Shown: positions 23,188-61,634 of the stretch, piece by piece
How positions within the stretch are numbered: the first letter of the stretch is position 1
Layout of the letters: every line of letters begins with the position of its first letter
Program-made: the position numbers and the translations under genes
Notes under the pieces: model-generated
What the model was told of the DNA's origin: nothing
Databases searched by the model: none
What the model saw: only the letters and a program-made list of their open reading frames with translations
NCBI RefSeq assembly: GCF_001625215.2
Contig: NC_030385.2
Location: 28,359,598 to 28,423,597, forward strand
Source of the DNA: Daucus carota subsp. sativus
Lineage: Eukaryota > Streptophyta > Magnoliopsida > Apiales > Apiaceae
Reading direction: 5' to 3'
Length of the DNA stretch: 64,000 bases

Positions 23188-24069
23188 GATATTGGATTTA
23201 TTTTTGGGTTTCGGGTTCGGATTGGATTCAAATTTCGGGTCGGGTTTCGATACGGAATACCTAATATCCAAATCCAAATTTAAACTTGTTCAGGTTTAAA
23301 ATTCGAATCTAAAATATCGAGTTCGGTAAGAACCGGTCGAGTATCCATTCGGATCGAATTTTTCATTCATCCTTACCTAAAACGGGGCATTACTTTTTAT
23401 TAAATATATGTTTAAAGTTTAAACAACTTTTTCTTATACCTAATTAAAAAGTTACTGTTGACAATTATATGGGTGATAGGGCAATATAATTACTTCTTTA
23501 TTCTTCTATGTAAAATTTTAAAGTTAATTATATTTTTGAATAAATTTTGATTCTAAAGTAGAAGAATAACTATAATTATACATAAAATGCACAAAATATT
23601 TAACACATACAATCTAAACATAAAATTTGATTTTTTAAATTTGGTTCAACTTGAACCACACAGAACCCATTTGTATATTATGATTAATTTTTAATATTTT
23701 TTTGAACAGAAATGATGAAATTTTATATTTTGATTTATGAATAATATATTTGATAAATAATGATTATATGTATATAACATAATTTTCTTTCAAAAGTTTC
23801 GTTACAAAAATGGGATGAAATTGAAAACAGGCATCCAGGTGCTTTCTCTTCTAAAAAAGCCTGGCCTAACAAATAAATAGGATACATTAATGAATTTTTC
23901 ATAACATATTACTCAAAAAGTAAAAAAGAAAAAGAAGCTCGTGACTTTACATGTGTTAACGAGTTCAAAAAACAGACCGTTGCGTTCTCCCTGCATCTGA
24001 TTCACACCCAACATCAACCACTTTCTCCAAACACAAAAATCTCACGGCGAATTGATAAATTAGGTTTCG
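22301..24069. other. Intergenic, AT-rich, with a repeat block
   Basis: No gene is seen. The region holds a degenerate inverted-repeat block (22640-23372) with microsatellites inside it. From 23380 to the next gene the sequence is AT-rich and featureless. The final 100 bases are CA-rich and suit a leader for the downstream gene. Confidence 0.5.
22640..23372. repeat. Degenerate inverted-repeat element (GGGTTCGG-rich)
   Basis: The left arm (about 22640-22800) has CCAAATTCAAATC and CGGGTTT-type words. The right arm (about 23185-23372) repeats them in reverse complement (GGGTTTCGGGTTCGGATTGG and similar). Between the arms lie (TA)n at 23029-23058 and (AC)n/(TA)n at 23136-23182. It looks like an old MITE or foldback element; no family or target duplication can be fixed. 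Confidence 0.4.
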
Positions 24070-36440: not shown

Positions 36441-36638
36441 TCAATATACTTATATAAAGAAGAAGCGAGTGGCGTGTAGGTGGCGCCTCTCACATCGCTT
36501 CGTTCTATTTTTCTAATTTTCTAGATTTTTTGGATGAAATCAATATACTTATATAAAGAAGAAGCGAGGGGCGTGTAGGTGGCGCCTCTCACATCGTTTC
36601 GTTCTATTTTTCTAATTTTCTGGATTTTTTGGATGAAA
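36441..36638 (+). repeat. Tandem duplication of the Helitron 5' end (2 x 99 bp)
   Basis: Copies at 36441-36539 and 36540-36638 are nearly identical. Each starts TCAATATACTTATATAAAG and ends TTTTTTGGATGAAA. Either TC could serve as the 5' terminus. This suggests slippage or re-insertion at the element's own end. Confidence 0.9.
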
Positions 36639-36681
36639 AATATCAAAAATTAGAACTACCTTTTTAAGTGGGTATATTAGA

Positions 36682-36890
36682 AGTAAGTTTCAGAATCTGA
36701 TTTGGTTTCAAATTATTTATGGAATATAGTAGCTTGAAAGTTTTAATCTGATTTTGTTTCATAATATTTAATTATGGGAAAAGATAGATTATTTATAGGA
36801 TACAGTAGCTTGAAAGTTTTAATCTGATTTTGTTTCAGATTATTTAATTATGGGAAAGTTAGCACACAAGTCTCTCTATACCTATAAATA
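36682..36890 (+). promoter_or_regulatory. Helitron promoter: short repeats and TATA box
   Basis: Partial direct repeats of TAGCTTGAAAGTTTTAATCTG with GATTTTGTTTCA occur near 36730 and 36808, with a weaker copy near 36690. They are followed by TATAAATA at 36883-36890 and a CT-rich, transcript-like leader. This fits the promoter of the Rep-helicase gene about 1.5 kb before its first probable codon. Confidence 0.55.
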
Positions 36891-38394
36891 CCCCTGTAGA
36901 TTGTAGGATTTTGGATCATCTAAACAAAACCTCCTCTCTCTCAATACCACAACCCTACCTCTCTCCGGTGATAGTTCTCTTGCTCGATTTCTAACTCGGA
37001 GGTGCTGTTCTTCTTCAACGATAAGTGCAGGCTGTTTATACAGTATTAAAAAAATAAAGGTTGTTGCAAGCAAACGTAATTTTAGACCGTTATATTAGAG
37101 TCGACAAATCCAAACACGGGAAAAGAATATAGTCTTGACATGATATTGATGGTTGATATCAATAAATTAACTATTAGTGATGTATGTTTGTTGGTTATTT
37201 TTTTATAATATTTGTTTTGTTCATCGGACATATTTGTTGTTGTTAATTTTTATATGATTTACTTTGTATACAGGAAAATATTATTCATGCATTATCTGTT
37301 TGCTCCGTTCAAGCAACTTTTAAGAGGGTAGTTATAGACCGTTATCTCACAGATTTAAGTTAGATATTTTTGTACACAATCAATCCAAAAAAATTGGAGG
37401 AAGATGACAATGTAAAAACATGATTACTTTTCAAAAAAAACAAATAAAATTAAGATTCGTCATGCTTTAAATTGTTAATAACGTGTATAAATTTATTTTC
37501 ATTTTTCACCATGAATTATAGTCCAATTTTGCAATTTTATATATTAGTATTGGTATTACGTCAAGATTTTTATAATATAAATTTATTTTATCTTACAAAT
37601 ATTAATTTTGAAACATTAATATACTTTTTATAGACAGTCACAAAATTATTTTATTCTGCAAATATTAATATTGAATCATCCCTTAAATCATAAATCCTGA
37701 TTCCCATTTCAATGCCATTTTACACCCCCTGTCCTCAAAGTTGATACTTATTTACAAAAATTGCCATCATACTTTCCTAAAACTGACTGCAATCTTGGAC
37801 TTCAAAAAATTACATCCCATGTGCTCTTTCTAATTTTGTCAACTGGGAAAGTTTACACCTGTGAATAAAGTATAATTTTTAACAACTCATCACGTGCTGC
37901 TGTCTCACCAAATTTCAAAGTTTCTATTCATCCATCTCTTTCAGTCCATCTCTTTCATGTGTGTTGTTTTGGCAAGCAGACAATTCCGATTCCTCTTATG
38001 TGCTCTGGATAGGTGGTTTTCATTCTTTCCAATGTGATTTTCAAATCACACTGAACAAAACTTCTCTGCTGTCGTTCTAAAAGGCAATCGGACAAATCTT
38101 CCATACTTTGAAAACTGTACTCGACCTGAATTCCATTCCGCTTCTGTGCTTCTTTGTAGCTGTTTTTCCGTTTTTTGAATTCGATTTTCAAATCAAAAGC
38201 ACAAAACTTATCTGTTGTGGATTTTTTTGGCATTCGGACAAATCTTCCCTTCACTGTAATCTTGGACCGATGTCTACTTCTTTCCTCATCTGTACTTCTT
38301 TGCAGCAAAGTCTTCATTTGACCACCAATTTGTCCACGCAATGCCATCTGGTTTCATTTTCGATTCACCACAGGAATAGGATTTTCAAGCCTCC
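36891..38394 (+). other. Rep-helicase leader region with degenerate repeat
   Basis: No conserved protein is found. The first 120 bases look like a leader, followed by AT-rich probable intron. At about 37990-38105 and 38140-38255 there is a degenerate direct repeat; both copies contain GATTTTCAAATCA and ATTCGGACAAATCTTCC-like words. On the minus strand this repeat is open for 130 codons (38347 to 37955) and encodes a Lys-rich peptide with two related halves; its reality as a gene is doubtful. Confidence 0.4.
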
Positions 38395-41300
38395 ATGAAA
38401 GAGGTATACACTTGAAGAGTATTTCACAAGTTTTGCACATTATCGAAGCTTCTTCTTTGTTATTTCATATTTCACTGATAATCTATTAATTTACAGGCTA
38501 ATTATAATCATCTCAGGCTTGACAATTTCCCTACTTTAAGGAGTGATGGTTCTGGTGAGTTAATGGCCCTCTTTTTGATTAAGTAACTCTGATACTCTGT
38601 TTAGTAAGGTCCTAACAAGTTGTTTGATGTATCATAGGTTCTACATCGAAAAGAAGAAGGCAGGTGTTTCATAGCAATAGAGAAAAAACACTGCGAGATG
38701 AAGGTGAACATCAAGTACTGCTGATGGTTTTCTCTATAACACTTCTGCTGATATAGTTTTCGACAAAAATATATTTGGTTTATAGGTGCTGTTATTGAGG
38801 CGGATGCACAAGCAACTCCAAGTCAACGACCTCCACTCTCAAATTTGACCAATCAAAGCTATAGACAATCTGGTATAAATTATGTATTTCCATTCATTTG
38901 TGATTTGTTTAGTCATGTCAAAAGTACAAATAATCAAAGGTATCTTGAGTTTTGTGTTTGTTAACTCCATTGAACTCTTGCCATGGATTTCCAGTTGGAA
39001 GAATTGAAGAATTGTGTCATTAGATTAGTTAACATAGTTTCTATATTTGTCTCTTTTTTATGTTAGGTTCTGGATTTACCGCTTCTACTGAAAAAACTCC
39101 ACTTGCAAACAATAGAAAATACAGCTTACTCACACCTGGTATTCCTCCCTGCTTTTATGCATGTGTTATTTTTGGGTGTTATCAAAACTATGTTAAGGAT
39201 TTGCTTCACTTTAATTATAGGGTCTGTGTTGAACATGAATGCACCAGTCAGTTCTCATGATCAATCTCCTCTGTCCAATGTCACAAGCAATCATAATGGT
39301 AAAGCTTCTGTTTGTCCTGAATATCATCTTGCCATGGATTCCCAGTTGGAAGAATTGAAGAATTGTGTCATAAGATTAGTTAACATAGTTTTAATGTTTG
39401 TCTCTTTTTTATGTTAGGTTCTGGATTTATAGCTTCTACTGAAAAAACTCCACTTGCAAACAATGGAAAACACAGCTTACTCACACCTGGTATTCCTCCC
39501 TACTTTGATGCATGTGTTATTTTTTGGTGTTATCAAACTATGTTAAGGATTTGCTTCACTTTAATTATAGGGTCTGTGTTGAACATGAATGCACCAGTCA
39601 GTTCTCATGATCAAACTCCTCTGTCCAATGTCACAAGCAATCATAATGGTAAAGCTTCTGTTTGTCCTGGATATCATCTAGAATGTTTCAATTTCACAGT
39701 CTAATATAATTAGAAACACTGTTATAGTATGGATCATTTTTTTGGTCGCTAGGTTCCTCCTCTACTGGTATTTTTTGTCCATTGGATAGAAGTGTTGGGA
39801 GATTACCTCTTGCACAGACAAACAGAAAAAGAGATAAAAGAGGTATTTCAGAATTTTGCACTATAAGAAATCCAAACTTCCGATTCCTTTTAATTTTGTG
39901 TTTTTTGGGTAATAACAACTTATTAACTGAAATAATGTGAGTGTTTTTTGGTTCTTAGCAACTGTGTTCAACAGCAGTGGACAAACAGGTTCAAGTACAA
40001 GGCATCCGCTTTCAAACATAACAAACCAGATACCACTGTCACCTGGTATTTCACGGAGCTTTAATTGATGTTCAAATATTATGGTGTCATAAAAATTAAA
40101 GAATAATTTTTTAATGTCATTTTATGTCTAGGTTCTGTGTTGAACATTAATGGATCAATGTTGGTCCAAACTTTCGATTCCTTTAAACTTTGTGTTTTTT
40201 GTTTTATTAAAAATTTTTAACTGAAATAATGTGACTGTTTTTTGGTTCTTAGGAACTGTATTCAACAGCAGTGGACAAACAGGTTCAAGTACAAGGCATC
40301 CACTTTCAAACATAACAAACCAGATACCACTGTCACCTGGTATTTCACCTAGCTTTAATTGATGTTCAAATATTACGGTGTCATAAAAATTAAAGAATAA
40401 TTTTTTATGTCATTTTATGTCTAGGTTCTGTGTTGAACATGAATGGATCAATGATTGATAATGATAAACCTCCGCTGTCCAATGTAACAATTCAGCATCA
40501 TGGTAAAGCTCATATTTCTCCTTATTTTCCTGGAAATTAAGACATGAGGTATCTTTTTCTTACAAAATAAGTCAGTTTACAATCTTCTTCTTCTTCTTAT
40601 GTAGTTAAATCCCAAAAAAACTTAAAAAAAACAAAAGACCAGTTGTAGAATCACAGACAACTTCACAAAGGAAACTTAAAAGGATTGGAACAGCGGATCA
40701 AGGCTTGCCGATCAGTAGGTTATTTCCTGATGATACTGATGCTTTAGATGGTATCGCTGATAGTCATGATACTACTCCAGATCAGCCTGATAAATTGGTC
40801 GAGGACGATGATATTCTTTATGATGGTGGTAAAATTCTATTATCTTTTTTCCATTTTTCTTTGGAAGGACATTTCAACATGTTATAGTCTTCCTATACCA
40901 TAATTATTTTCCTCTTTTCATTATTTAACATTGGATGCTGCAGAGCTATTATATGGAACTGATAGTGATGTAGATGATGTAACGGATGCAGAAGCTGTTG
41001 TTTCAACCATGGAAGGTATGATCCTTTTTAAAAATTTGAAATTCTTTACGAATTTCTTTTTGGTTACCCCAATCACTTCTTGAACGACATTCAGGATATT
41101 GTAGTCTTGGGGCTCCAAGTGTGAAATGTATCCACTGTAGTGCAGTCATGTGGAAGGAAGAACGCGTCAACAAGAATGTGACAAAGGGAACCCCTGAATT
41201 CTCACTCTGCTGCTGCCGGGGTCAGATTAATTTGCCTAAAGTTCCACCTACCCCATCTTACCTCTGGCAGCTGTACAATGATCCAGAAAAGGGAAATAGT

Positions 41301-44300
41301 TTCAAGAGGAATGTACGCTTATACAACACGATGTTCGCTTTTACGTCCATGGGTGGCAAGGTTGACAATTCAATTAATACTGGTAGAGCCCCCTATATTT
41401 ACAGACTTAATGGGCAGAACCATCATGTTTTTGGCACCCTTATACCTAATGATGGAAAAGATCCCAAGTTTTGTCAGTTATATATCTACGACACTGAATA
41501 TGAAGTTGAAAATAGAATGAAATAGGTCAAGGTCAATAATGGGGAACCGGTTGAGGCTGCAGTGGTTCGGGGTTTGTTAGACATGTTGGATTCGACAAAT
41601 GAGTTGGTTCCATTCTTTTGTATGGCTCGCGACAGGTTCAAAGAAGATGCTGTTCAAGATTTGAAAATTGTGATGAAAATATCACGAGCCGACAGTGGTC
41701 GTGAGAATTTTATTGGTCCGTCCAATGAAGTGGGAGCTATTATGGTTGGCGATCTGGAAGACACATGTGGGGATATGGATATTGTCATTCACAGTATTAA
41801 GGATGGACTACAACGTATAAGTGATATTCATTCTAAGTTAATGGCATTACAATACCCTTTGCTGTTTCCAAGAGGCGAGGATGGATATTCCGATGATATT
41901 CCTTATGTCAAGACCAAAAACAATGCTCATAAGAGACGCCAAAGAATCACCATGAAGGAGTATTACTCTTATCGACTACAAGTCCGTCATAATGAAGGTG
42001 CTTTACTTACTCTTTCTCTCATCCAATTTTTTTGCTTATTCTACGTTTATCAATTTAACTACTATTCTATCAAAAAATATATTTATGTTAGTTACTTGGA
42101 TTTGAACAATTAGGAAATACTCCGAGGCTTGGTTGTAGACTATTTCAACAATATATTGTTGACTCTTTTTCGGCTATTGAGCAAGCCCGTTTGTGGTGGT
42201 ATCGTACTCATCAAACCACCCTTCGGAATGACCTGTACACAAATAAAAAAAAAAGTCTAAGCATGGGTGAGGGCAGCACATCAAATGTTGGAAAAGGATT
42301 TGTTCTGCCTGCCAGTTTTCTTGGATCTCGAAGATACATGCAACAATGTTTTCAAGATGCCCTGGCTGTATGTCGCCATATTGGGCATCCCGATATTTTC
42401 TTGACCATGACTACTAATCCCATGTGGGAGGAAATCACTGAGATGATGAAAAACATGCAAGGGTGCCTACCTGTTGATTCTCCTGATGTCATTGCACGTG
42501 TTTTCAAGCTCAAGCTTGATCAGATTGTTGATGATATAAAGAACAAGGGCTACTTTGGAACCTGTGCTGCAAGTATGTTCGAAATCAAATACAATCAGCT
42601 CAATATGTCATTGCTTGCTGTTAAAAAATGTTATTTCATTTATCTCTTCATTACTTGCTTTTATAATTGGACATTAATTTTTCTCTTGCTTATTGCATTT
42701 TTTGATATTATTTTTTTGAATGAAACAGTCATGTATGTTGTTGAGTTTCAAAAGCGGGGTTTGCCGCATGTCCATATGCTCATCTGGCTGGATTCTCAAT
42801 CAAAGAAAAAACTTAATTCAAATGTTGATAGTTTTGTATCCGCTGAAATACCTGATCCCGATGAAGACCCTGTTGGATATCAAGTTGTAGCTAGACACAT
42901 GATCCACGGTCCTTGTGGATTGCTCAATACCAAGTCTCCTTGCATGAAGGATATGAAGTGCACTAAACACTTCCCTAAAAAGTATGTTTATCATGGAGAT
43001 AATATAATATTCTACAGCTTTTTAATTTGAGACAAACATTCATGCAATTCATCTTTAAATTTTTGTTTTAACAAACTACAGTGCTCATCTGTTTTACTGT
43101 TGACATATTATAGGTATTCATCTCAAACTATGTTTGATCAGTCGGGGTTTCCTATTTACAAACGCCGCAATACAGGTATCTCTGTGAAAAAAGGGAATCA
43201 ACAACTTGACAATCAGTATGTAGTTCCATACAACCGTGACTTGCTGGTGAAGTATCAATGTCACATGAACGTGGAGATTTGCTGTCATGCACGTAGCCTC
43301 AAATATCTATTCAAATACTGCCTTAAAGGTTCTGACCGTGCTACTGTTGAGATTACAAACAAAAACACTGTCTCTAATTCCACATCTCCTGATGCCCCCA
43401 AAGATGAAATCCAAGCATTTTTTGATGGTCGTTACATATGCGGTTGTGAGGCTGCCTATCGAATTTTTGGATTTGACATCCATTACCGATCCATCTATGT
43501 TCTTCGTCTATCATTTCGCTTACCTGGCAAAAGGAACTGTACATTTAGAGAAGATGAAGAACTTCACAAGGTTGTTCAACGGGAGAAATTTAAACAAAGT
43601 CAGCTTGAGGCTTTCTTCCAACTGAACCAGAAGGACACCAACGCCCAAAAGTTAACTTATGATGAAATTCCAAGGTACTATGTTTGGAATGAGTCTGAAT
43701 CAGTTTGGACAGTTCGTAAGAAAGGGACACGAATAAGTAGGCTTTTGTTTACTCACCATACTTCTGGGGAGATATGGTACTTGCGGTTATTACTCACAAA
43801 GGTTAGGGGACCAACCTCATTTAACCATTTTAAGACTGTTAATGGTGTCTTTTGCAATACATTCAAAGAGGCATGTCAGAAATATGGTTTCCTGGAGGAT
43901 GATAATGAATGGAATGAGGTTCTTGATGAATGTTCAAAATGTGGTTTTCCAGGGCAGATTCGCGAGCTTTTTGTCCATATAATGGTGAACTGCCAAGTCA
44001 CTGATTTGTCTTCACTTTGGAAAAAGTATTGGAAACCAATGAGTGATGACATTGTCATGCGAATTCAAAAAGATGCTTTGAATGCTGATTACTCTATCAG
44101 CGACAAACAACTACAATTTTACATTCTAGCAGGTCCACTCATTTCCTTATTCTTTTTCTTTATTTTACAGCACAACAAACATTTAATAAATACATTTCCA
44201 CTCAAAGAACTATTAAGCAAAGCAGTTTATTTTCTAATTTTAATTTTATGACATTACCTCTGTTGTTTTTGTGTACTGCAGAGATTGACAAATTACTCAG

Positions 44301-45921
44301 ATCTATTGGCAAATCACTACAGCAGTTTGCACAGTTGCCGCATCCTCCAGCTTCGTTTCTTCAGCGTGGAGCGGATAATTTGATAAAGGATGAGACAAGC
44401 TATGATGTTGAAAAAATGGAAGAAGAATTCAACAAGCTATTCCCCAATTGTAATGCTGAGCAGCTGGAGGTTTATAATGCAGTATACAATTCAGTTCAAA
44501 ATGGCGAAGGTCGTTTGTTTTTTGTTTATAAAAGTGGAGGCTGTGGAAAGACCTACATGTGGAAAACTCTAATATATAAACTTAGATCAATGGGGAAAAT
44601 TGTGTTGCCTGTGGCATCTTCTGGGATTGCTGCTACTTTGATGCCTGGTGGCCGGACTGCCCATTCTAGATTCAAGATTCCAATTATTTTAGATGAAGAT
44701 TCATGTTGCTCAATATCTCACAATTCTGATATTGCGGAGCTTATAAAGAATACCAGCCTTATCATATGGGACGAGGCTCCAATGCAGCACATGTATGCTT
44801 TTGAATGCCTAGACCGATCATTTAGAGATATTATGAAATCGGTAAGTCCTGAAAGAGGCCAGATGGTTTTCGGAGGCATTACAATTTTGTTAGGTGAAGA
44901 TTTCAGGCAGATACTTCCTGTAATCAACCTTGCTTCTAGGGGTGAAATTGTATCTGCATGTATCACACGATCTAGATTATGGGCCGCTGCTAAAATCTTC
45001 CTTCTAAAACAGAACATGCGACTAAACCAGGGAGAGTCTGAAGCTGACCGAGAGAATTTAAGAATTTTTGCAGAGTGGGTACTTAAAATTGGGGACGGTA
45101 AGATTTCTCCCCCAAACACTATTGACGCAAACCAAAATGAAGATGATATTGAAATTCCAGCTCAATTCTGTGACACCACTGTTGCAAACAGTGTGGACAA
45201 TATGATCAACTGGACTTTTCCTGATTTTCCAAGTTGTTTTCAAAATCCAAAATATTTGAGTGAGAGAGCAATTCTCACTCCAACAAACCAAACAGTTGGT
45301 CATTTGAACTCTGTCATTGTTGATACTATCCCAGGAGACATAAAATCATACTACAGCGTGGATAAAGCAGAAGATTTTGGTGGCACTGCTTCAGATTTGA
45401 ATTTTGCATTTCCTCCTGAATATTTGAATTCATACAATATTCCTGGACTACCACCCCATCAAATGGATTTCAAGGTTGGTGTTGCTGTAATGCTGATGCG
45501 AAATTTGAACCAAACTTTGGGGCTTTGCAATGGAACAAGGATGATGGTGACTAAATTAATGAAACAGTGCGTTGAATGCGAAGTAATTTGTGGTGCTTTT
45601 GTTGGGAGTAGACACTTTATTCCCAGGATGGAGCTTTATCCCACTGAGACAAAACTCCCTTTTAAGCTTATCAGAAAACAAATGCCTTTGTAAATCTGCT
45701 ACTCAATGACCATTAACAAGTCTCAAGGTCAATCTCTTGAACGAGTTGGATTATTTCTGCCAAAGCCGGCCTTCACACATGGTCAAATTTACGTAGCTGT
45801 TAGTAGGGTGACATCTCCTGCTGGGTTGAGAATTTTTATTGATGCAAACACAGGAGCACCAACCAATATAACGCAAAATATAGTATACAAAGAGGTCTTT
45901 TACAACCTGCCCAAAGTCTAA
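38395..45921 (+). pseudogene. Helitron Rep-helicase (RepHel)
   Basis: This is the transposase that nicks, copies and unwinds Helitron DNA. Exons start with 38395-38403, 38497-38554, 38638-38703, 38786-38872, then an array to 40502, then 40605-40828, 40944-41015, 41095-41997, 42114-42572, 42729-42981, 43114-44132, 44282-45921. The Helitron N domain spans about 41.1-43.6 kb. The HUH motif is GLPHVHMLIWL (about 42760-42790), and the two catalytic Tyr lie in SLKYLFKYCLKG (about 43300). The PIF1 helicase has Walker A SGGCGKT (44531-44560), Walker B IIWDEAP, DFRQILPV (with GE where GG is usual) and the closing MTINKSQGQSL and YVAVSRV. It is broken by TAG at 41523, TAA at 45691, and a shifted frame in an A-run near 40615-40635. 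All core motifs survive, so the decay is recent. Confidence 0.9.
39067..40502 (+). repeat. Array of duplicated phase-1 exons encoding PLSN-T motifs
   Basis: In the N-terminal part of RepHel, small exons (about 70-95 bp) begin and end in phase 1, so any of them can be copied or skipped without a frame change: 39067-39138, 39221-39298, 39418-39489, 39571-39648, 39753-39842, 39959-40045, 40253-40339, 40425-40502. Many encode PLSN(V/I)T, as does 38786-38872 upstream (PLSNLT). Two duplications are obvious at DNA level: a unit of about 351 bp (38995-39345 against 39346-39697) and one of about 293 bp (about 39870-40125 against 40165-40424). One exon copy near 40131-40165 is truncated into intron sequence. 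Confidence 0.85.
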
Positions 45922-46462
45922 GTTTGGATGCTAATGTTTTTGAGTTACTATGCTTTCAGATATTGGCTGTCAGCAATCCTTAATGTTAGATTTTGTCTAC
46001 TGTAATTACAAATGGATTTTGGATGTAACTAATGTTTTTTTTGGTACTATTATCAATTGGCAGAACTTTTATGGTCTAAGTTGTTTAAGTATTCCAATGA
46101 AAGTAAAATTTCCTGCTAAAGTTCTTAACAATTATTGTCTACTTTTAATATGGAGTACATTCAATTGTTATCATACATTAGACAGCCATACTGATTCTAA
46201 ACTTGAAACTCATTGGTGTTTTCTACCGTGTGAATACTAAATTTTTAGTGTTGAGTTCGATAATTTGTACAATGGCCAGGCTTTATCAAACAAATCAGTA
46301 AACAAAAAATTAATAGCAAGCTGAAAACTGTACAACATTGATTCATATTGTGAAAAGAAAGATGCTGATGCTTATAATAGGTTTAAAAAGTCAATACTCC
46401 TGCAATAAGCCTAGCAGTACAAATGTCTTGCCCAATTTCAAATAACCAGTTTACCAAGTACA

Positions 46463-47961
46463 TTAAACATGATTCTTCACCACTCTCAAACTGAAATGGT
46501 CAAGTGAGTGCTCTGGACACTGAAAAACAAGTTTATCTCCTACATTCAGCTTCAAACAATCTCGCATAATTTGCCATCCATCTACAATTGTAGAACAATA
46601 ATAGTCATCACGCTTGCGAACATCAAGCATCCAACGTCCATCTCCATGATAAACATTGATTGTTTGGAATTTCTCCCACGTGTTACACAGCTTTCTAAAT
46701 TTGTTTGAGATTTCCTGCATTAAAAATTTTACAATTTCAGACTTCCAAAGTTATTAATACCCACACATTATTGTAACCTAATTACTCACAACAATGTAAC
46801 AGTCCGTTGACATGTGCTTCTGTTCAACAACAATTTCAAAACAACTGAACCCTCTCTGTTCTGACTCTCTGTTCTCTCCTGCAAAACACTATCACATTTA
46901 GTTTGTAACATAAACAGTAATAGTCACTCTGTCATGCAAATATTATGATCAATAATTATTTAAATAAAATTCATATACCATCTGATAGTGGTGTCCCAGG
47001 AAAATTAATTTCATAAAGATTTTAATCAAAAACAGATACTTCAATTGTTTTCTTCCCATCAAATGCGAACAATAACATATGCACCGAATCTAAAACATAA
47101 GCTTCGGCCATATGAAACATAGCAACCAAACCACTGAATTTCTTCGATGACCGTGAATAATTGCCTTCAAATTTCTTCCCATTACTGATAAGATATGTTA
47201 TATTGTCTGGGAGAAACCTCCCACAGCGTTCCAAGAATGCCGGTGGTGGATCCTATAAAATTGTTATACAAACATCAGTTTTCATTTACAAAAAATTAAA
47301 AATTCTAACTCATTTGTCTTCTTATACTTACAATTTCATCACAAGCACTTATTGTCTTATCAAAGAAGCAAATAAACCTCCAACCTCCATTCCCAACGGT
47401 TACTACAAGGAAAATGTATGTGAGACAAGTAAAAAATGGATTGCTTCACCTTTTAATATAATTTAATCACCACTATTATTTAAAAACAGAGCTACTTACC
47501 TAACTGCGGGATATACTCTTGGAATGGATCAATGATATCAGGATAATTAAATTCCGAGAAATTGGTACTCATTATATAGACATTGATGTTATACCCCCCC
47601 AAAGTACTCAAACAATAGCAACTCACCCCCTTTAAGTTCTAAATACTGGAAAAGGTTTGAAACACCATTCAACAGTCCTTTGCTCCTATCAAATTCCACA
47701 GTTAACAAACAACCATTTCTCAATTGCAGATTGACGGTGCTATGCAGAAGATGACCATATTTAAGGCAGAATTCACGAGGAAGAGTCTGTCACATAACAA
47801 AAATATAATGACCTCAACTGAAATTCAAATATACAGATTTGAAAATATAGAGAAAGTCTAAGTCTAAGTGTGTTTAGTGTGATTACCAGCTCATTTGGTA
47901 CTGTGTCTGCGTATTTCAATATATGGCAAAACTTCTCTGCAACAAGTCCTGCTGATTCCAT
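46463..47961 (-). pseudogene. B3a: three-domain B3-like gene, Helitron cargo copy 1
   Basis: Minus-strand exons: 47961-47887, 47786-47500, 47402-47332, 47252-46979, 46878-46790, 46714-46463, about 349 codons. Three B3-like DNA-binding domains can be seen. The first has LPREFCLKYGHLL and LKGGELLLFEYFGG. The second is FLERCGRFLPDNITYLISNG to VFD-NLYEINFPGTPLSD. The third runs from FSCFEIVVEQKHM to LNVGDKLVFQCPEHSLDHFS. This layout resembles the plant REM/VRN1 branch of B3 transcription factors. Two breaks: a frame shift at a run of seven C (plus strand, about 47594-47600) and a TAA at 47024-47022. It is divergent from RPA-a. Exon lengths match B3b almost exactly. A role in binding Helitron or host DNA is speculation. 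Confidence 0.75.
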
Positions 47962-49921: not shown

Positions 49922-52525
49922 ATGCAAGAGATGTCATTCTTCAACAAATATGATAAGGTGCAGCAGCTTCATAGCGAAAGAACTGAGTGGACCTTGCGTG
50001 TTCGAGCTCAGGCTATCTGGAAAATTGTAAACAGAGTAACCCAAGAATTCCGAGGCTTAAATGTTATCTTCGTGGATGATTCAGTAACAGATCTGTTATT
50101 AATATTATCATTAAATGTGTTTGGTCTGTGCACTGTACTTCATCGTTGTGTATTTATTTGTTTCTTAGAACTGGAGGATTCATGCTTTTGTCAGTTCAAA
50201 AATCTGTGTTTTCTTTGATGATATTCTAAAAGAAGGGCTCATCTACACTCTGTCAAACTTCCATGTAAGAGACTACGGGAATGAGGATAATAATAGAGCT
50301 GTGAGATTTGGAAAACACATTTATTTTGCAAATCACACACAGTTGATTCCAGAGGCTGAAAATATAACCAATATTGCACCCTACGCTTTTGATTTGTTTG
50401 CACTAAACGAGGCCAGAAGTTTGCTTGCTGATATTCGGTTCTTATTTGGTAAATTTACAATTCCTACAGTATAGCTTCTTTTTCAAATAACTCTTGCTAC
50501 AACATACACAACTTTAACTGAATTTACATAATTTTATTAGATACTGTTGGTATACTAGAAGACAAGAACATCCAACCTGTTCAGTCCAAAGAGGATGAGA
50601 AGAAAATTCATATTCGATTTAAGATTTCTGATGGCAGGTGATAGTTGTTAAAATTTTCAAACAATGAATAATTTCTGCATATTTATGATAATTACTTAAA
50701 AAACTAAAGATTAAATCTTCAATATTCTTCATATAGGTCATCCATGAATGTCACCTTCTTTGGTGATCTGGCTGTTGAATTTGCAAACTCTGTCAAAGCA
50801 ATAAAAGATGATACCATTACAGTAATAATTGCAAGTGCAAAAGTGAATGAGTACGAAGGTATTATTTTTGTTTTAGAACTGTTTAAGGCGTTGCTTTTAT
50901 CACAACTGTGTTTCAATCTTAAGGCCATTATTTTTATTACAACTGTCTTTCATACAAGTTTATGTGTCACCTTCAGGAATAATATGCTTGAACAATTATC
51001 CTGCGACGAGGTTCTATCTTAACGCAAAACATCCCAGTGTCAAAAAACTAAAACTGAGGTATTAACTCTTGAATTATTTTTGTTTGCTTAAAACAAAAAT
51101 GAAAATAAAAACATTTCATGTAGTTGATGAATTTGCTTCGTTATTTAGGATGTCTGATCCTGCCTACTGTGCCAATAATCTTGAGCCTTTGCCGGAGCAA
51201 ACTCCACCACTATTCTCAGTTGAAGATATCAAAAAACTACCAAAAGAATTTATCGAGGTCTGTTTGCTCAGAATTTATGAAACTACATAATTAGTACAAA
51301 TTATTTGTCAAACTTCATAACTTATATAAACTTAACATGGAACTGCAGAAAAAAGTGAGGTGCCAAATTACTGTGAAGAAGGTTGATGAAAAGAGCAACT
51401 GGTATGACAATGTTTGTACTACATGTCAAGCTGAGGTAACCACCGTCGAGGGAAGGTATCGATGCATCATTTGTTCAAGGAATGTACCTTTTCTAGATAA
51501 AAGGTAATCTTCTGCCTAAACTAACCTTTACTCAAATGTTTGCAATACAAATTTCTTTAGTATGGAAAATGTCGTATTGTCTAAGTTTTCAAAATTGTTT
51601 TCAATATAATCGGAAGTTCAGTTGTTTCCAAGCCAATGTCATTTATAGTTCAAATAACCTTTTAACACAGGATACTCCTAAAACTGTATTTTTTTATTAA
51701 AAAATTAGGTTCAGGATTGCTACACTCTGCAATGATACCACTGGCCTCATTGCCATAATCTTCCCTGATGACGAAATTCAACGAATCATAGGAAAGAATG
51801 CTTTTGAAGTGGAGGATGAAGTAAGATTTCATTTTTACTTTTAAACGAATCAAATGTGGGTTCCAATCATATTTTAAAGATCTGCACTTTTGAAAATTTT
51901 GGCTGACTTATTCATTTTACAGCTGGGGGATGAGAATAAATTTCCCTCTTGCTCAAAATTTTTGAGAAGAAGGACTACGTGATCACTTTAACTATAAATG
52001 AGAGGAATGTTAACAAAACCATCAACATATACAGAGCTACAGATATATCTGATCTCATTGAAGTGTTAGGGAATCATAGTCCCCCAAACTTGGCTGCTGT
52101 TAGTCTAACCAAGGAACCGTTGGTGACCCCTGCAAAGCCTCCAGTCCATAATCCCGCAAAGGCACCCATTGTCGAGAACACGAACAATGCCACTGCCACT
52201 GTAAAACATCCCTTAAACTTCATAATCAATTTTATTTTATGAGCTTTTAAAGTCTCGAGAAAACTGATTGTTTTTTTTAAATGTAAGATATTCAATGCAG
52301 CATTGCCACAGAGACCAGCCCACCTACAGCAAACTCAACCAACAAAGCGAGGAACCGAGTGAAGAAGAATGATGTTCGATATGAAATGGAGGATGATGTC
52401 CCACTTGGCAAATTCAAAATCCTGAAAAAAAACAAGGTGGTAATTGATAACTGCATTAATTTTTTTTCTTATTGACCTCATAATACCTATTTTCTTCTAA
52501 TGAAATTTCTCACACTTAGGTTTGA
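49922..52525 (+). pseudogene. RPA-a: RPA70-like single-strand DNA-binding protein
   Basis: It is homologous to the large subunit of replication protein A, which coats single-stranded DNA; plant Helitrons commonly carry such genes. Exons: 49922-50083, 50169-50448, 50541-50637, 50737-50858, 50977-51058, 51149-51257, 51349-51503, 51709-51820, about 51923-52200, about 52301-52435, with a possible last piece GTT-TGA at 52520-52525. OB-fold segments include NWRIHAFV and SSMNVTFFGDLA, and a zinc ribbon CTTC...CIIC lies in exon 7. One frame shift lies near 51945 in exon 9, where FPSLLKIF-type sequence changes frame, so only the C-terminal tail is affected. The start ATG is chosen because it opens the exon after a clear acceptor. 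Confidence 0.8.
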
Positions 52526-53012
52526 TTGTGTTGCTGTATTTCAATGGTGGAATTGTGGAACTTGATTTTCTTTTGGTAGTTGGCAATTCTTCTTTTGGAA
52601 ACTATCTTTTGCTGGGCTGTCCTTTTTCTATTTTGTTGGTCAATGGAGATGCTTTGGAAGATTTACATTCCCTTTTGATGAAACAGTGCCACAGAACTCA
52701 TTAATGTAGATGCATTCTGGTGACATTATTAAGATACTGCTGACAGTATTAAGTTGTAATATTCCTTTCTTGGCAATTACTGTCAGGGCTCTTGCTGCTG
52801 TGTTGTAGCTATCATAAACGCTGTTTTTGAAAAACAAACTTGGTTGGTATGAACTCAGTAAAAGCAAATGTTTTCTTTATTTTTTTATATTATTTGTCAA
52901 GAATCTGTATTTATGTGTTATCTTGAATGGTTCTACAAATAAAACTTCTATATATAGACAAACCAATTCATAAGTTGAATCCTCTAAATTTGTTGGCTTT
53001 GCAAACAAAAAT
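52526..53012. other. Spacer between the two RPA genes
   Basis: About 490 bp of T-rich sequence follow the probable RPA-a stop. A TATATATA run at about 52950-52957 lies about 60 bp before the RPA-b ATG and may be its TATA box. Nothing else is recognised. Confidence 0.45.
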
Positions 53013-55211
53013 ATGGCAACTAAAAAGTATGATAGCTTCAGTGCTTTAACCAAAACAAATACCTACTTCATTGTCCCAACAAGAGTTTTGAACCTGTGGA
53101 GAGGTTATCGAAGAACCGGAGAACCTTTCAAAGGCTTCAATCTTTTGCTGCTTGATCACAAAGTAAGTTTAAAACACTGTACACTTTTATTAAACTAATA
53201 TTCCCAGCCAGTTGTGTTTCTCTAATTAATTTGTAAATTATTTATCAGCGAGCGAGGATCCATGCTTTTGTTCCTTACAACCTAGCAGAGGAGTTTGAGC
53301 CTATGATTAGAATTGGAAACCTCTATTTGTTGGAGAATTTCACTATTCAACATTACAAAGTTGATGAGAAGTTCCGTTGTCTCCGAATGGATTTTCAAAT
53401 TGTTTTCAACGAGGAAACGGAGATGAACCCGCGGGAAGAAAATTTGGTCAACGTAGAGAACTGCTGGTTCGATTTCTTTGACATTGCTGAACTGCCAACT
53501 CTGTCCAAGCAGAATACATACTTAACTGGTAGATCAAAACTTATAAATCAGTAGTACAACAACCTAAACAAGTACAGATTACCCTTTTTTTATTATTTTG
53601 TTGGTTGTGCAGATGTGGTAGGAATCATGGAGGAGCATGATCATATTCGGAGAATCAAGAATTGCAACGGGGTCATACAGTCACAGCTGATTTTTGAAAT
53701 AACGGATGACAGGTACATGAAAACAAAAACATCTTCTTTTATATGTAACACTCAACAAAAAAAAATTACTGAAATGATAAATGACCCCTATATATATATT
53801 ATTCCCTTCAAGATCAAGTGTCAGAGTTACTTTATGGGATGACTTTGCGAGGCACTTTGCTGAAAGCTTGAAAGAAGCTCAAGAATTTCCAGTCATCCTT
53901 ATTCTTGGTTGTGCTAGGGTCACCACATGGTCAGGTATGTCTACTTGGAATAGATAAGATTGGAATGTTTTCAGTAACATTGATTATAAGATTTTTTCCT
54001 AATGTGGTTTACCAGAGCAAGTAATTTTGACTCATGTTGGGGCTACAAATTTCTATATCAACTGCAATCACCGTAGCGTGAATGAGCTGAGGAAACTGTA
54101 AGTAGCTTAGTATTCTATCTTTCATTAATAATTAGACCAGTAAATGCAAAAAGAAATTGAAATTCATTACATTAAGCAAACATGTTAACCTCCTTTTGTT
54201 TACAGTCTAGCACAGAAGAAGATCTCAACAAAGAGTGTTTGCAATGAAAACAGACGAGCAATGAAATATTATAAGCTGGATAACATACCAACACTAGGAG
54301 TTGACCACGCTGAGGTAAAAAAAAATATAAAGACTATCACTTTTCTCAAAACTTAATGTAAACTGCACTAAATTCTCAACAAGGTTGGTTCATAATTTTT
54401 CAGAGGCAAATCTTCTGCAAAGTCAAACTGACTGCTTTCCAGCAAGTTAAGTCATGGTTCCAACCTACATGCACCTCATGCTATGCTAAAACTGTCAAAG
54501 TAGAAGGCCAGGACACATGCACAGTTTGTCAAAGGGTTGTTCTTTATGCAGATAACATGTAAGTGTACAGACAGCTCTATCATAATTTACTAAACTGTTT
54601 ATAAACATAGCATGGGTGAAAAAATTTTGTGATGCAGGTTTGAGTTGTATGCAATTGCATCTGATGAAACTGGATCTATGATGATTATACTTGAAGAGCG
54701 TGAAGTTAAGAAATTGATTGCCAAAACAGTCTCTGACATTACGGATGAGGTGATTAGTCAATAATAAACTCCCCCTATTTTGTATATAATTTCAACTTAA
54801 ACTAATGCAAATCGATTATACACTAACTTATTCTATTTTTTTCAGGGAAACAACGATGACAGTTTTCCCACAATTCTAAATACTATCATTTGCAAGGAGT
54901 ACACACTAAAAGTCAGAGTCCAGATGGATAACATTCTTAAAAAATCAGAATTCTATTTGGTTACTGATATTATGCCAGGAATTCTTACTGAAGGACACCA
55001 ACAACCTCAGCTCTCCATCCCCCATCCCATTGAAAGCATTGATGCACAGGCAAGCAAATCCACTATCATTCTTATTATCACAGTCAATGTACTTAAACAC
55101 TTATTATCTCAGTCAATGTACTTATACAGTATATTCACTTTCTTACAATTACAGCCATCATCCTCAGCCTGCACTAATGGTATCATATCAACTATCAATC
55201 TCAATTCCTAA
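53013..55211 (+). CDS. RPA-b: RPA70-like single-strand DNA-binding protein, intact
   Basis: Exons: 53013-53162, 53249-53528, 53613-53712, 53813-53934, 54016-54097, 54206-54314, 54404-54558, 54638-54749, 54846-55049, 55155-55211, giving about 456 aa. If the last intron (GC-AG type, 55050-55154) is retained the frame stays open and gives 491 aa. It starts MATKKYDSFSALTK. OB-fold segments include RARIHAFVPYNLAEEF and SSVRVTLWDDFARHF. The zinc ribbon CTSC...CTVC is in exon 7. Exons 2 and 4-8 have the same lengths as those of RPA-a (280, 122, 82, 109, 155, 112), so the two are duplicates. It is shorter than host RPA70 (about 600 aa or more) because the N-terminal protein-interaction domain is absent. 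No break seen. Confidence 0.87.
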
Positions 55212-55973
55212 ATATCTGGCACACTACATGGCAGCAACAGATCTGAGAAAGTTCGTCTAAGTTATCTATTATCAGTTCTATTAGTTAAATCAAATATCAC
55301 ATCTGTTTGTGATTTAATATTTTCCTAAGCAATATGTACTTTACATTCTCATACATGAATGAATGCTTATCTATATTTGGAAAATTAGTGCCCTAAATTT
55401 GGTAGAGCCATAAAACTATTAACTATATATGATGAGTTATCATAACAACAGAGTCTTTGCAAAGACATTAATTAAGTTTTAAAAGTACCAAAGAATACAA
55501 ATGGTGCATTTTATAATATACCTGCAACAAAATACCAGTTTGCAGAGGCTTTCCCACCATCATCACTTGCCTTGGTGCATTATTCAAAAGTAATGAAGTC
55601 TCTAACCTGCAAAATTTTAATACTGTACTGCAAGGAGGAATTGACATAAATTATTGACACTACTTTCATAACAACTTAAAAAAACAGTACTTGCTGACAT
55701 ATGATCTAAAACTATAATAGTTGAATTAAAAATCTAATACCAACTTCCAAATTTAACACTCAAATTCATAACATCATATTGATAGTCAGGCCAGCTCAAT
55801 GTTAGAAAGTTTCACAAAAGTGCGGCAGTAGTAAGCAACATTCTCACAGAATTCTGAACCATTACTAACAATTTCAAAGATAACTACTTCAACATAACGC
55901 AGACACATAATTGCAGAACAGTACTTTTTCATTTTGTCAACTACAATTTAAACAAGCAAGACATAACATGGTT
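55212..55973. other. Spacer between convergent RPA-b and B3b
   Basis: About 760 bp of AT-rich sequence lie between the 3' ends of two genes that face each other. No coding sequence or clear repeat is seen; it should contain both transcript ends. Confidence 0.45.
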
Positions 55974-57516
55974 CTATGCACCATGATTCCTGAGCACTTG
56001 AAGAGCAAAATGCTGAATAGAGTTCCTTGCACATTTCAGCACAACCACGTCTCCCAAATGCAAGCCCAGGTCATCTCTGAATTGGATCCACCCATCGTGG
56101 ATTGTGGTACGGTTGCTCTTCCCACCACGATTCCCCACCTGCAACTTCCAACCTTTCTCCTCTGAGTAGATGCTGATATAGTCTTTTTTCTTCCACAAAC
56201 CAGTGATAGCAATGTAATCAGTTGAAATATCCTACATTAACAGAGGTAACATACAGTAAAAGTAAAAAATCTTAACCACAAAACTACAGTACAGAAGCAT
56301 ATTTCAACCACATAATAGAAAAATTAATTTCTTAACCACAGATATCCAGTACAAATATAAGATTGGTCAATATACAACAACATATTAATTTCTTACCACT
56401 CCATACACATATTTGTACAAGTGGTGAGGCTGGACAATGATCTCAATACGTCCAAAGACAGGAAGTGCATGCGAGTTTAACCCTATAATAGAAATTCAAG
56501 TGTAAAATCAGTACTTTCAAAGATGATAAAATTAAAGCAAAACACAATTAAGAGTACACATTGTCTACCACTAGACAGAGGAGTTCCAGGAAATATGTAC
56601 TCCACAAAGTCGTAGTCGAAAAAGGAAATAGTTGTTACACCAGGCTCCTCATAACTAAACAACACCAAGTTAAAGGAACTGAAATCTTGAATTCCCTCCA
56701 TTGACCAGAATTTGTTGAGACCACAAAATCTCCCAACATCATGTTTGTACACACCCTCAGTTCACTTCCCATTGCTAAAAATAAAGTTCTGATACCCGGG
56801 CAAAAGGTGGAAAGCTTTCTTAAATGAGCGAGGGTGCTCCTGTGAAAACAAAATTTTACATACCAAGCATTTCAAAAAGTCTATATAATCTTATATTTTA
56901 AAATGGAAAAATGAGGAGCTTACAAATTCATCAAACATTGTCTCCTCCTCTTTCAAGAATTTGATAAACTTCAAACCACCAGATTTAACATTCACTAAAA
57001 ACATATAAACAATAATAAATCAGTACAATATCAAGGGCCTAAACAACAGAATGAAATAAGTGTTTGAGTTGAAAGCAAAAGACATACCATTTCGAGGACG
57101 ACCCTTTTGCGTTTCATGAACCAAAAGGGGATACTCAATCTCCACAAGGTTCTTCCCAATAACATAAACATTAAAACCAGATTGCCCATCATATTCAAAC
57201 ACAAGAAGTTGCCCAGGTTCCATTTCAAAATCCTCATACAAGCTAGACATGTCATAAATCAAGCCTCCCTCTTGGTAATTGAAAACATGAATTTCATAAC
57301 CATTTCGAAATTTCAACATAAAAGAATTCGCCAGCTTATTACCATATTTGCTGAGAATCTTTTCCGGCAACATCTAAAAAAAAACCAAAAATGAGTAAAG
57401 GAACAAATTTCTTTCACCACTACAAAATAGGGGTAACTAACCATTTCTTCCGACATTAAGTCCGCATCTGTTAGGAATTTGATGAACTTCTCAACAATGA
57501 TCCCCGATGTCTCCAT
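55974..57516 (-). pseudogene. B3b: three-domain B3-like gene, Helitron cargo copy 2
   Basis: Minus-strand exons: 57516-57442, 57373-57088, 56994-56924, 56839-56569, 56482-56397, 56231-55974, exactly 349 codons, the same total as B3a. The first B3 domain reads LPEKILSKYGNKLANSFMLK to MEPGQLLVFEYDGQSGFNV, very close to REM/VRN1 B3 domains. The second is HPRSFKKAFHLLPGYQNF to YDFVEYIFPGTPLSSG. The third runs from DISTDYIAITGLWKKKD to LHLGDVVVLKCARNSIQHF. A single TGA at 56764-56762, where B3 domains often have Trp, interrupts the second domain. MET at 57516 aligns with the start of B3a; an in-frame ATG 12 bp upstream is possible. It converges on RPA-b. A host B3 gene is less likely, given the paired copy. 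Confidence 0.78.
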
Positions 57517-60500
57517 AACCCTAATCAATACCCTTTATTAATAAGCGAAACCACATTTCGGTGGAACATCGGTACCAAAAGTACCAAAATTTGGTCACTT
57601 TCCTATTGATTAGGATTTTATAAACATTATTATACTATTATCAAAAGACTTCTATATCGAATAGAATTTTATTATTAAAGACTTCAATATTCATTAGCAC
57701 AATGAAATACTTCTGTATTGATTAGAATTTTACTCCTGTTAAAGACTTCAATATTGATTAGGACAATGTCATTTAATTTTTTTTATTTAATAAAAATAAT
57801 TATTATAGAATTATGAAAAGTTTTTCGTATTGTTAGAATTTTATAGTTGTTATTATAACAATTATTAATATTATACAATTATGAAAAGACTTCTATGTTG
57901 ATTCAGATTTTATTATTAAAAATTTCAATATTGATTAAGATTTTATAATTATTAGTGTTTAGGATTTTGTTATGTAACATTTATCACACAGTTAAATCGC
58001 TAACAATTTAACTTATGAAACAGTATTCATATCAAAATTTGGGTATCATCACATTATTTTTTAATTTAAACTTTCATATTGATTAGGATTTTATAACCAT
58101 TATTATACTATTATCAAAAGACATCTATATTGAATAAAATTTTATTATCAGAGATTTCGATATTCATTAGGACAATGAAAGACTTTGTATTGATTAGAAT
58201 TTTACTCCTGTTAAACACTTCAATATTGATTAGGATAATGTCATATAATTTTTTTATATAATAACAATAATTATTATAGAATTATGAAAAGTTTTTCGTA
58301 TTGTTAGGATTTTATAGTTGTTATTATACATTGTTAGGATTTTATAATTATTATTATACAATTATGAAAAGACTTCTATGTTGATTCAGATTTTATTATT
58401 AAAAATTTCAATACTGGTTAAGATTTTATAATTATTAGTGTTTAGGATTTTGTTATGTAACATTTATCGCGCAGTTAAATCGCTAACAATTTAACTTATG
58501 AAACATTATTTATATCAAAATTTGGCTATCATCACATTATTTTTTATTTAACAATTATTACTATTATCAAAAAATTTCTATATTTGTCATGATTTTGTAT
58601 TATAACAATTATCTCACTAATAAAAATATATTCCCAACAAAATTATTTGTTTTAATTTCTAAAACTCAATAATTTAATATACGGAACAACTCTGTAAATC
58701 TTTTATCATACTTCAGATTTCAAATAAATAAGAAGTTCATATTGATATTAATATAATATCCATATATAATTTTTATCAATAAGCCGAATCAATATCATCA
58801 AAATACTAAATATCAAAATGCCAAAATTTTATTATTATCATATAATTTTTAATAATAATAATAATTATTATTATTATCATATAACTATGAGAATACTTCC
58901 ATTTATGATCAGAATATTTGTAATATATAATGATTATCACACTAACAAAATTACGGTCAACAAAGCTACTCATTTTAAATTTTAAAACTCAAATAATTTA
59001 TTTTATCAAATAACTTTAATTTGGTTATCATCATATAATTTTTTTTATTCAGCAGTAATAATAATTATACTATTATAGATTTTATAGTGAAATAATGTCC
59101 TACCAATAGAATAATAATGTCAACGAAATTATTGGTTTTAATTTCTAAAACTCATAAAATTTAATTTACGAAACAAATATATAAAATTTCTATCATATTT
59201 GAGAATTAAAATAAACAAGATTCAATATTGATACTAAAGTACCAAAAAACTTGGTCATATATTTTTTAATAATAATAATAATAATCATTCAGTGCTCTTC
59301 AGAAGATTGCGATAAAGACGAATAAGACGGTGGTAACACTGACTTGACAATGAAAACGTTTTCAAAGAGAATGAAGCTATTGTCCAGAAGATTGCGATAA
59401 AGACGAATAAGGCGGTGGTAACACTGACTTGACAATGAAAACTCAAAGAGAATGAGGCCATTGTCCATATTGCAACATATAACAAAATAACTAAAACACA
59501 AGACATAAGTCAAAAAATTTGATATCAAATTAGTTTTGGAAAGTTAATTAATTTTGTCAAACTACAATATTAGTTTATCAAACTCCAACTAGAATTATAT
59601 ATGATGTTTGCCTATTAGATGAATAAAATAACAACAATAATTTCAATAAGTATATCAAAAATATGTTTTGTCCAATAAATAATAAATTTGAAAAAATATA
59701 TAATCCCGTGCTTGGCACAGAGACCCATATTGTTATGAAATAAATTTAAAATAGGATCAAATTTTAATATATAAAAAACGTCATATTAAATAGAAATATA
59801 TGAGAATACTTCCATGTATGATCAGAATTTTTGTAATATAATGATTAACACACCAACAAAATTTCAGTCAACAAAGCCATTCAATTTAAATTTTAAAACT
59901 CAAATAATTTATTTTATAAAATAACTTTAATTTGATTATCATCATATATTTTTTTATTCGGCAGTAATAATAATTACACTAATATAGATTTTATAATAAA
60001 ATAATATACTACTAATAGATTACTAATGTCAACGAAATTATTCGTTTTAATTTTTAAAACTCATACAATTTAATTTACAAAAAAATTTTATAAAATTTCT
60101 ATCATATTTCAGAATTAAAAAAAAAAACAAGATTCAATATTGATACAAAAGTACCAAAAAAATTGGTCATATTTTTTTTTAATAATAATGATTATTACCA
60201 TTCAGTGCTCTTCAGAAAATTGCGATAAAGACGAATAAGGCGATGGTAACACTAACTTGACAAATAGAAACTCAAACAGAATGAAGTCATTGTCCATATT
60301 GCAACATATCATAAAAGAACCGAAACACAAGACATACGTCAAAATATTTGATATCAAATTAGTTTTGAAAAGTTAATTAAATTTGTCAAACTACAATATT
60401 AGTTTATCAAACAACTATAACACCGTTGTTAGATCTACAAAAGCTCCAACTATAATTATATATAATGTTTGCCTATTAGATGAATAAAATAATTGCGACT

Positions 60501-60636
60501 AGAAAGTCGTATATTAAATAACAATAATTTAAATATCATTTAAAATAATAATTTAAATAGATATAATAAAATATGATAATGTAATTAAAAAAGACATTAT
60601 TCTTCCAATAAATAACAAATTTTAAAATTTTATTTA
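57517..60636. other. AT-rich 3' zone of the Helitron
   Basis: Three kilobases with no conserved coding sequence. It should include the B3b promoter and contains the two tandem duplications listed separately (57604-58565 and 58885-60660). Base composition is extreme, with long AT stretches and ATTATT microsatellite runs near 58855 and 59270. Confidence 0.6.
57604..58565. repeat. Tandem duplication, period about 473 bp
   Basis: TATTGATTAGGATTTTATAA at 57604 recurs at 58077. The two copies stay alignable through ACTTCAATATTGATTAGGA, GAAAAGTTTTTCGTATTGTT and AGTTAAATCGCTAACAATTT. The second copy has an extra partial repeat near 58320-58345. Confidence 0.85.
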
Positions 60637-60660
60637 AACCCGTGCTTGGCACGGGTTATC
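58885..60660. repeat. Tandem duplication of the Helitron 3' end, about 0.87 kb
   Basis: The first copy covers about 58885-59730 and the second about 59798-60660. Shared marks include GAGAATACTTCCAT(T/G)TATGATC, TTCAGTGCTCTTCAGAA, TTGCGATAAAGACGAATAAG and CCATTGTCCATATTGCAACA. The first copy ends CCCGTGCTTGGCAC followed by AGAGACCC, a decayed terminal hairpin; the second ends with the perfect hairpin and CTAG. The first copy also has an internal 70-bp duplication (about 59296-59440). Confidence 0.85.
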
Positions 60661-61558
60661 AGCTAGTATAATTAAAACACTAAACCCATAAATAGCTGCA
60701 TGCAATCACTGTAATGATAAATAAAACTTGAAAAAACGAAATAAAACCAAACCTCTTAAGCAGCTGAGTAGTACAAACAATGGAGAGTTGTAGAAGACGA
60801 TGACTTAGTACCGGGCTTTGAAAAATTTAGAAATGCTGTAATGAAATATTACTGCTTTAATGTATCCGTTACCCACATCTTAGTGTTAAGACAATTTAAT
60901 TAAGTGAAAATTCAAATACTTTAAGTTAGGTAGGGAGTTACCTCAAATTAATGCAGATACCTTTTACTAATATCAATGGAACAAAGCATGCTCATCCTTT
61001 TTCGATATTTTTATTAAAATAATTTGTTTTTGTTCTTTTTACTTGAGAAAAACCCAAATTACTTCAATTTTTATTAAAAGGATGTTTTTTTAAAGGAGTA
61101 TAATTGTTGATTACTAAAATGATAATCAAATATTTAGTAATTTTAGAGAAACACAAAATTCTAAAAGAAGTTCTTTTTGAACATCAACTCAAACCAAACA
61201 AATATTATATTTTACAAACTTTGATAATTTTAAAAATGGTGTGATTATCGTTTAAAATTATTGAACATCAAAGCTTATTCCCAAGAAGATGAATTATATT
61301 TTTTTTTTATAGAATATAATGTCTTAAAGGAATATAAACTTTGATTTTACGTATAGTATAATTCTTTTCTTCACACAAAACATTATGTAGTTATCTATAT
61401 AATACTTATTTTCTCAATTCATCATTGATTCAGTTTATTCTCATCCAACTTATAAAGATAGTGAAATGTTCTACGGATAATATTGTACATATAATATTAT
61501 GCTTTATCATTTCTTCGTGAAATTTAACAACTGTTTCATTGCAAAAATTGATTTATAT

Positions 61559-61587
61559 GCCCATGCGTAGCGGGCAAAAATTACTAG
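61559..61587 (+). mobile_element. Helitron-type 3' terminus
   Basis: GCCC (61559-61562) and GGGC (61572-61575) flank ATGCGTAGC, then eight bases and CTAG (61584-61587) followed by T. The stem is imperfect but the spacing fits a Helitron end. Its element probably extends to the left; no boundary is seen. Confidence 0.55.
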
Positions 61588-61605
61588 TTAAAATAATTTT
61601 TATAT

Positions 61606-61634
61606 GCCGCCGCAACGCGCGGCTTCTCAACTAG
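61606..61634 (+). mobile_element. Helitron-type 3' terminus
   Basis: GCCGC (61606-61610) and GCGGC (61619-61623) form a stem around CGCAACGC, followed by TTCTCAA and CTAG (61631-61634), then T. It lies 47 bp beyond the previous terminus, as expected if one Helitron inserted just before the tail of another. Confidence 0.55.

What the first reader, a model, noticed from the sequence alone, without database searches (positions are those of the whole stretch)
36441..60666. A 24-kb Helitron that carries two B3 DNA-binding genes besides Rep-helicase and RPA
Seen: between a 5' TC end and a 3' hairpin-CTAG end lie RepHel, two RPA70-like genes and, on the other strand, two genes each with three B3-like domains. 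Known: plant Helitrons often carry RPA70-like genes. I do not recall B3 genes as regular Helitron cargo. Inference: because the B3 gene is present in two copies flanking the RPA pair, it seems a stable part of this lineage, perhaps a factor that binds the element's ends or controls its promoters.
Basis: partly seen in the sequence, partly recalled or inferred. Interest (0 to 1): 0.85.

Follow-up and report, generated by a model that had tools for sequence, protein, structure and literature searches.

The report
Carrot Helitrons carrying B3 DNA-binding genes
A lineage of rolling-circle jumping genes in carrot carries, besides its replication genes, its own copies of a plant-type DNA-binding protein (B3) that selection appears to keep working, so these transposons may bring a regulator of their own; the piece first described is really three such elements nested in one another.

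Summary
The window is most likely carrot chromosome 5. The parts described are real, but the ends are not one element's. 36441 is the 5' end of an outer short Helitron; 60666 is the 3' end of a nested 3142-bp Helitron (57525-60666) just upstream of the second B3 gene. The B3-bearing Helitron is 37679-61587, placed to the base by empty sites. It holds RepHel, two RPA70-like genes and two triple-B3 genes on the opposite strand; both B3 copies here carry stop codons. B3 is not accidental cargo. Exact ends gave 12 pairs: two composites of tandem units, four short pairs without listed RepHel or B3 hits, and six elements of 16-24 kb with RepHel, all six with B3, three of them near-copies. 30 of 70 B3 loci lie 5-30 kb downstream of a listed RepHel on the opposite strand (random 0.36), mostly RepHels close to this one (8 of 8 at 80% identity or more). 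B3 exons show purifying selection (median dN/dS 0.26, ten pairs). Named homologues are Apiaceae only. No listing or passage seen links autonomous Helitrons with B3. B3's target is unknown; self-regulation seems likeliest.

The parts
36441..37678 (+). left part of the outer non-autonomous Helitron (5' TCAATATACTTATA, two tandem 99-bp copies of the end)
   Evidence: 54 matches; four of four fetched copies unfilled at the same place
61588..61634 (+). right part of the outer Helitron, 3' end GCCGCCGCAACGCGCGGCTTCTCAACTAG
37679..61587 (+). the B3-bearing Helitron, 5' TCCCTTAAATCATAAATCCTG, 3' CTAG, inserted between A and T
61558..61587 (+). 3' terminal hairpin TGCCC..GGGCA and CTAG; the exact pattern CCATGCGTAGCGGGCAN{1,8}ACTAG occurs 43 times in the genome (read backwards: 0)
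38976..40533 (+). direct repeats spaced about 350 and 294 bp in the 5' non-coding region
40609..45921 (+). RepHel gene (start and exons uncertain): HUH 42758-42790, two-Tyr motif 43301-43336, Pif1 helicase 44452-45558
46466..47961 (-). B3 gene, A type, three B3-like units, broken by a TAA and a frame shift
48473..49330 (+). about four copies of a 222-bp repeat between the divergent B3-A and RPA-1 genes
49967..51507 (+). RPA-like gene 1 (limits by eye; zinc-ribbon exon near 51415-51474)
   Evidence: no RPA hit in PDB for two exons
53013..53842 (+). RPA-like gene 2 (limits by eye)
55977..57516 (-). B3 gene, B type, six exons, one TGA in exon 4
57525..60666 (+). nested 3142-bp non-autonomous Helitron, inserted 8 bases upstream of the B3-B start codon
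60667..61557 (-). upstream region of B3-B, cut off by the nested Helitron; homologous to the relative at C6:31.8 Mb

Best explanation
A lineage of autonomous Helitrons in carrot, with relatives of its B3 protein in other Apiaceae, carries triple-B3 DNA-binding protein genes as regular, selected genes, beside RepHel and RPA. The genes lie on the strand opposite to RepHel; where I found the 3' end (13 of 25 loci), exon 2 of the outer gene begins 0.6-1.1 kb from it and the gene reads inward. Shown: membership in the element, recurrence, B3 fold of the last domain, low dN/dS. Inferred: the protein binds the element's own DNA and raises its transcription or lifts silencing, so copies that keep it leave more daughters (my weight for this role about 0.4). 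The window copy is probably old or dying: both its B3 genes are broken, and a smaller Helitron separates one from its upstream region.
Against: 31 of 70 B3 loci had no listed RepHel within 1-45 kb, and eight of 18 RepHels of 70-79% identity had no B3 hit in range; only the best candidates were scored, so these may be limits of the search, truncated copies or true absences. Three recent pairs have dN/dS of 0.39, 0.43 and 0.95, as expected of dead copies but no sign of selection. Many deeper pairs are saturated in dS. RepHel and B3 distances over six elements do not correlate (rho 0.17, p 0.54): modules may have been exchanged. No shared binding word found.
Confidence: 0.8

Rival explanations
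1. Captured cargo: one ancestral element took up a host REM-type B3 gene, and it has been copied passively since, without a role.
For: Helitrons often capture host genes (passages of PMC13317346); both window copies are broken; four short derivatives keep the ends and have no listed B3 hit.
Against: dN/dS well under 1 at large divergence and no stop in the three exons of 19 of 23 genes; conserved exon layout.
Confidence: 0.1
2. B3 recognises the element's ends and helps RepHel start or stop, its target being in the block next to the 3' hairpin.
For: The exact pattern with CCATGCGTAGCGGGCA occurs 43 times, read backwards 0 times, across subfamilies (an exact search cannot show how often the block varies); it holds CATGC, the core of the RY site of some B3 proteins (recalled).
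Against: The block may be read by RepHel itself; the 5' ends hold no such word; two B3 elements have a variant, CCATGCGGAGCGGGCA.
Confidence: 0.2
3. B3 acts on host genes, for example to open a cell state in which the element is expressed.
For: B3 proteins are host regulators of development (general knowledge); no call bears on it.
Against: No evidence either way here.
Confidence: 0.15
4. Ordinary host B3 genes that happen to lie in a Helitron-rich region.
For: Annotated in carrot as hypothetical or uncharacterised proteins.
Against: Fixed side and strand, exact ends, different flanks.
Confidence: 0.02

Closest known systems
Plant Helitrons with RepHel and RPA-like genes (for example the nine rice sequences of 8.1-15.5 kb in PMC4683698)
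   Same: RepHel, RPA-like genes, Helitron ends, A/T insertion, non-autonomous derivatives with the same ends
   Different: 16-24 kb and triple-B3 genes on the opposite strand; 'B3 domain' occurs 0 times in that paper (passages only seen)
VANDAL elements with VANC anti-silencing proteins (passages of PMC5735166 and PMC13317346)
   Same: a transposon-borne gene for a sequence-specific DNA-binding protein (shown for VANC, presumed here)
   Different: a non-TIR MULE; VANC has DUF1985 (recalled), not found here; VANC motifs accumulate in tandem repeats, no shared word found here
REM/VRN1-type plant B3 proteins
   Same: several B3 domains in one chain (recalled for REM); closest solved structures by sequence are VRN1 (E 0.003) and At1g16640 (E 0.12)
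   Different: multi-copy, inside Helitrons; named homologues only from Daucus, Heracleum and Apium

Membership tests
Helitron | 5' TC and 3' CTRR with a hairpin just before | tested here: met
   (hairpin -4.5 kcal/mol, z -1.04, 27 of 200 shuffles as good: weak)
Helitron | insertion between A and T without target duplication | tested here: met
   empty sites and flanks
Helitron | Rep with HUH and two tyrosines fused to a Pif1-type helicase | tested here: met
   meaning of the motifs recalled; one fused spliced protein was not modelled
plant Helitron with RPA | RPA70-like gene in the element | tested here: met
   second gene; first gene only weak
B3 domain proteins | B3 fold | tested here: met
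   C-terminal domain of P0002; Pfam B3 35.3 bits for gene B, 28.6 (cut-off 30.1) for gene A; first and middle domains not tested alone
B3 domain proteins | sequence-specific double-stranded DNA binding | not testable with these tools
   no assay
VANC anti-silencing proteins | DUF1985 domain (recalled) | tested here: not met
   Pfam scans of two gene models and four homologues list only B3
VANC anti-silencing proteins | short motif repeated in the element's non-coding regions | tested here: inconclusive
   127 shared 8-mers against a mean of 151 in shuffles

The most novel reading that the evidence does not exclude
Helitrons of the carrot family depend on a self-encoded triple-B3 protein that binds their own DNA and counters silencing or drives their expression: a third gene class for autonomous plant Helitrons, and a parallel to VANC in an unrelated transposon order.
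Probability: 0.4. Interest if true: 0.82.

Novelty: new variant of a known kind. Interest (0 to 1): 0.62.

Why it matters
The passages that I read, and my own knowledge, give plant Helitrons RepHel and RPA-like genes. A further gene kept by selection across a lineage, and of a kind that binds DNA, would be a lead to how Helitrons control or protect their own expression. Six carrot proteins annotated as hypothetical or uncharacterised (P0001, P0002, P0003, P0004, P0007, P0013) match, at 98.9-100%, exons of loci that lie beside a RepHel or an exact 3' end of this family, so counts of carrot B3 genes may include transposon genes.

Tried and rejected
Led nowhere: shared words in non-coding regions; promoter words among nine upstream regions gave the 3' end block and CCGTTAC in 6 of 9, which common descent may explain; RY-, RAV- and ARF-type sites recalled from memory showed no clear pattern in those regions; RepHel-B3 congruence over six elements gave rho 0.17. 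The search for B3 genes of the A type (P0019) did not complete, so how many elements hold both types is not known.

Papers: searches (listings seen, in part cut: for example 15 of 27 papers). [quoted passage not shown] No passage seen tells of B3 in an autonomous Helitron; subscription papers and Repbase were not searchable.

Full report
Place. The window lies in a 441-Mb genome whose C5 contig has the length, 47,556,597, of the contig given for a carrot protein, DCAR_0520333. I take the genome to be Daucus carota; the tool does not name it.

Three nested Helitrons. (1) The outer one begins at 36441 (TCAATATACTTATA, two tandem 99-bp copies) and ends at 61634. The four relatives that I fetched, of 54 matches, have both ends 1.4-1.7 kb apart, and at the place where the window holds the B3 element they read on without it (ATTGAATCA|TTAATATAATTTTTATAG; L034 with small differences). 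(2) The B3 element is 37679-61587. A relative on C6 (L030, L031) has the same ends in other flanks. (3) A 3142-bp Helitron, 57525-60666, lies 8 bases upstream of the B3-B start codon. It is present at three other C5 places at 99.9-100%, each with its own flanks, and the C6 relative lacks it.

Contents. RepHel, two RPA-like genes and two triple-B3 genes, as listed in parts. The B3 genes share an exon layout with relatives. The two window copies are deep paralogues: A groups with the young subfamily (5 rows, 100/99), B with 16 other rows (100/99). In the young subfamily the gene whose exon 2 lies 989 bases from the 3' end is A-like, and the inner one is nearest to P0007, a B-type protein (47-48%), so the genes have been rearranged between subfamilies.

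Recurrence. One search found 144 exon matches (117 of 463 candidates scored), which I collapsed to 70 loci. Against the 150 RepHel places listed (of 168 matches), 30 loci lie 5-30 kb downstream on the opposite strand, 1 on the same strand, 6 upstream opposite, 0 upstream same; random placing gives a mean of 0.36. With a range of 1-45 kb and the RepHels, 39 of 70 loci are linked and 33 of 150 RepHels have a B3 gene; the share falls with RepHel distance, and the widest links (38-43 kb) may be to a neighbour's gene. Of 43 exact 3' ends, 16 have a B3 exon within 3 kb inward on the opposite strand. Of 28 exact 5' ends (backward control 5), 12 pair with a 3' end within 60 kb: two are composites of tandem units, four are short (3.8-5.4 kb, no listed RepHel or B3 hit), six hold one RepHel and B3. 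Of these six, C2:36.2, C6:36.9 and C7:39.2 belong to one young subfamily; the others are the window, its relative C6:31.8 and C7:41.3. Ends that differ by one base from the patterns were not counted.

Selection. I fetched 18 B3 loci and used 25 in all, with the window's two and five fetched earlier; two were dropped for lacking full exons. Exons 2, 4 and 6 (273 codon columns) gave dN/dS 0.20-0.47, median 0.26, for the ten pairs with dS 0.15-1.2. Many deeper pairs are saturated. Three recent pairs (dS 0.02-0.13) lie at 0.39-0.95; five pairs of near-copies (dS under 0.02) lie at 0.09-0.13 on very few changes, and two pairs are identical. In six elements, RepHel ratios where computable are 0.03-0.36 and B3 ratios 0.11-0.43. 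RepHel and B3 disagree on kinship: C7:41.3 has RepHel 89% and B3 51% identical to the window. Exchange of modules or older B3 duplication would both explain this.

Mechanism. Shown: the genes belong to the element and are copied with it; the low dN/dS says that they are kept by selection. Inferred: the protein binds DNA. Most likely it acts on the element's own transcription or silencing, since a gene useful only to the host would hardly be kept in so many copies in one place of one transposon lineage, and other plant Helitrons are described with RepHel and RPA alone in the passages that I read. End recognition is the main rival. No test here separates them.

Noticed in passing
C2:36199293-36237054 and C6:30075057-30120555 (G000): Head-to-tail units of the young B3 Helitron, the first unit lacking an exact 3' end, as if the 3' stop had been read through, or by later loss.
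   Followed up: partly
C2:41783280-41787084, C3:50928794-50933393, C4:44094058-44099472, C5:41983302-41988114 (G000): Four short elements of 3.8-5.4 kb with both exact ends but no listed RepHel or B3 hit: likely non-autonomous derivatives.
   Followed up: partly
window 57525-60666: The nested 3142-bp Helitron is 99.9-100% identical at three other places within 1.3 Mb on C5, each with different flanks: recent, local spread.
   Followed up: partly
just right of the window, C5:28425816-28458353: Two further B3 gene copies and two RepHel hits in the opposite orientation; the nearer copy is of the P0004 type.
   Followed up: partly
C7:41289696-41308959 (G000) against the window: RepHel 89% but B3 51% identical to the window element: the two modules seem to have different histories.
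   Followed up: partly
P0006 (DCAR_0519990), C5:20.58 Mb: Gene model joining an RNase-H-like domain (PF13456) to a B3 protein of this family; fusion or annotation error. This B3 locus had no listed RepHel in range.
   Followed up: no
window 14569-28262: Several long open frames outside the finding, not examined.
   Followed up: no
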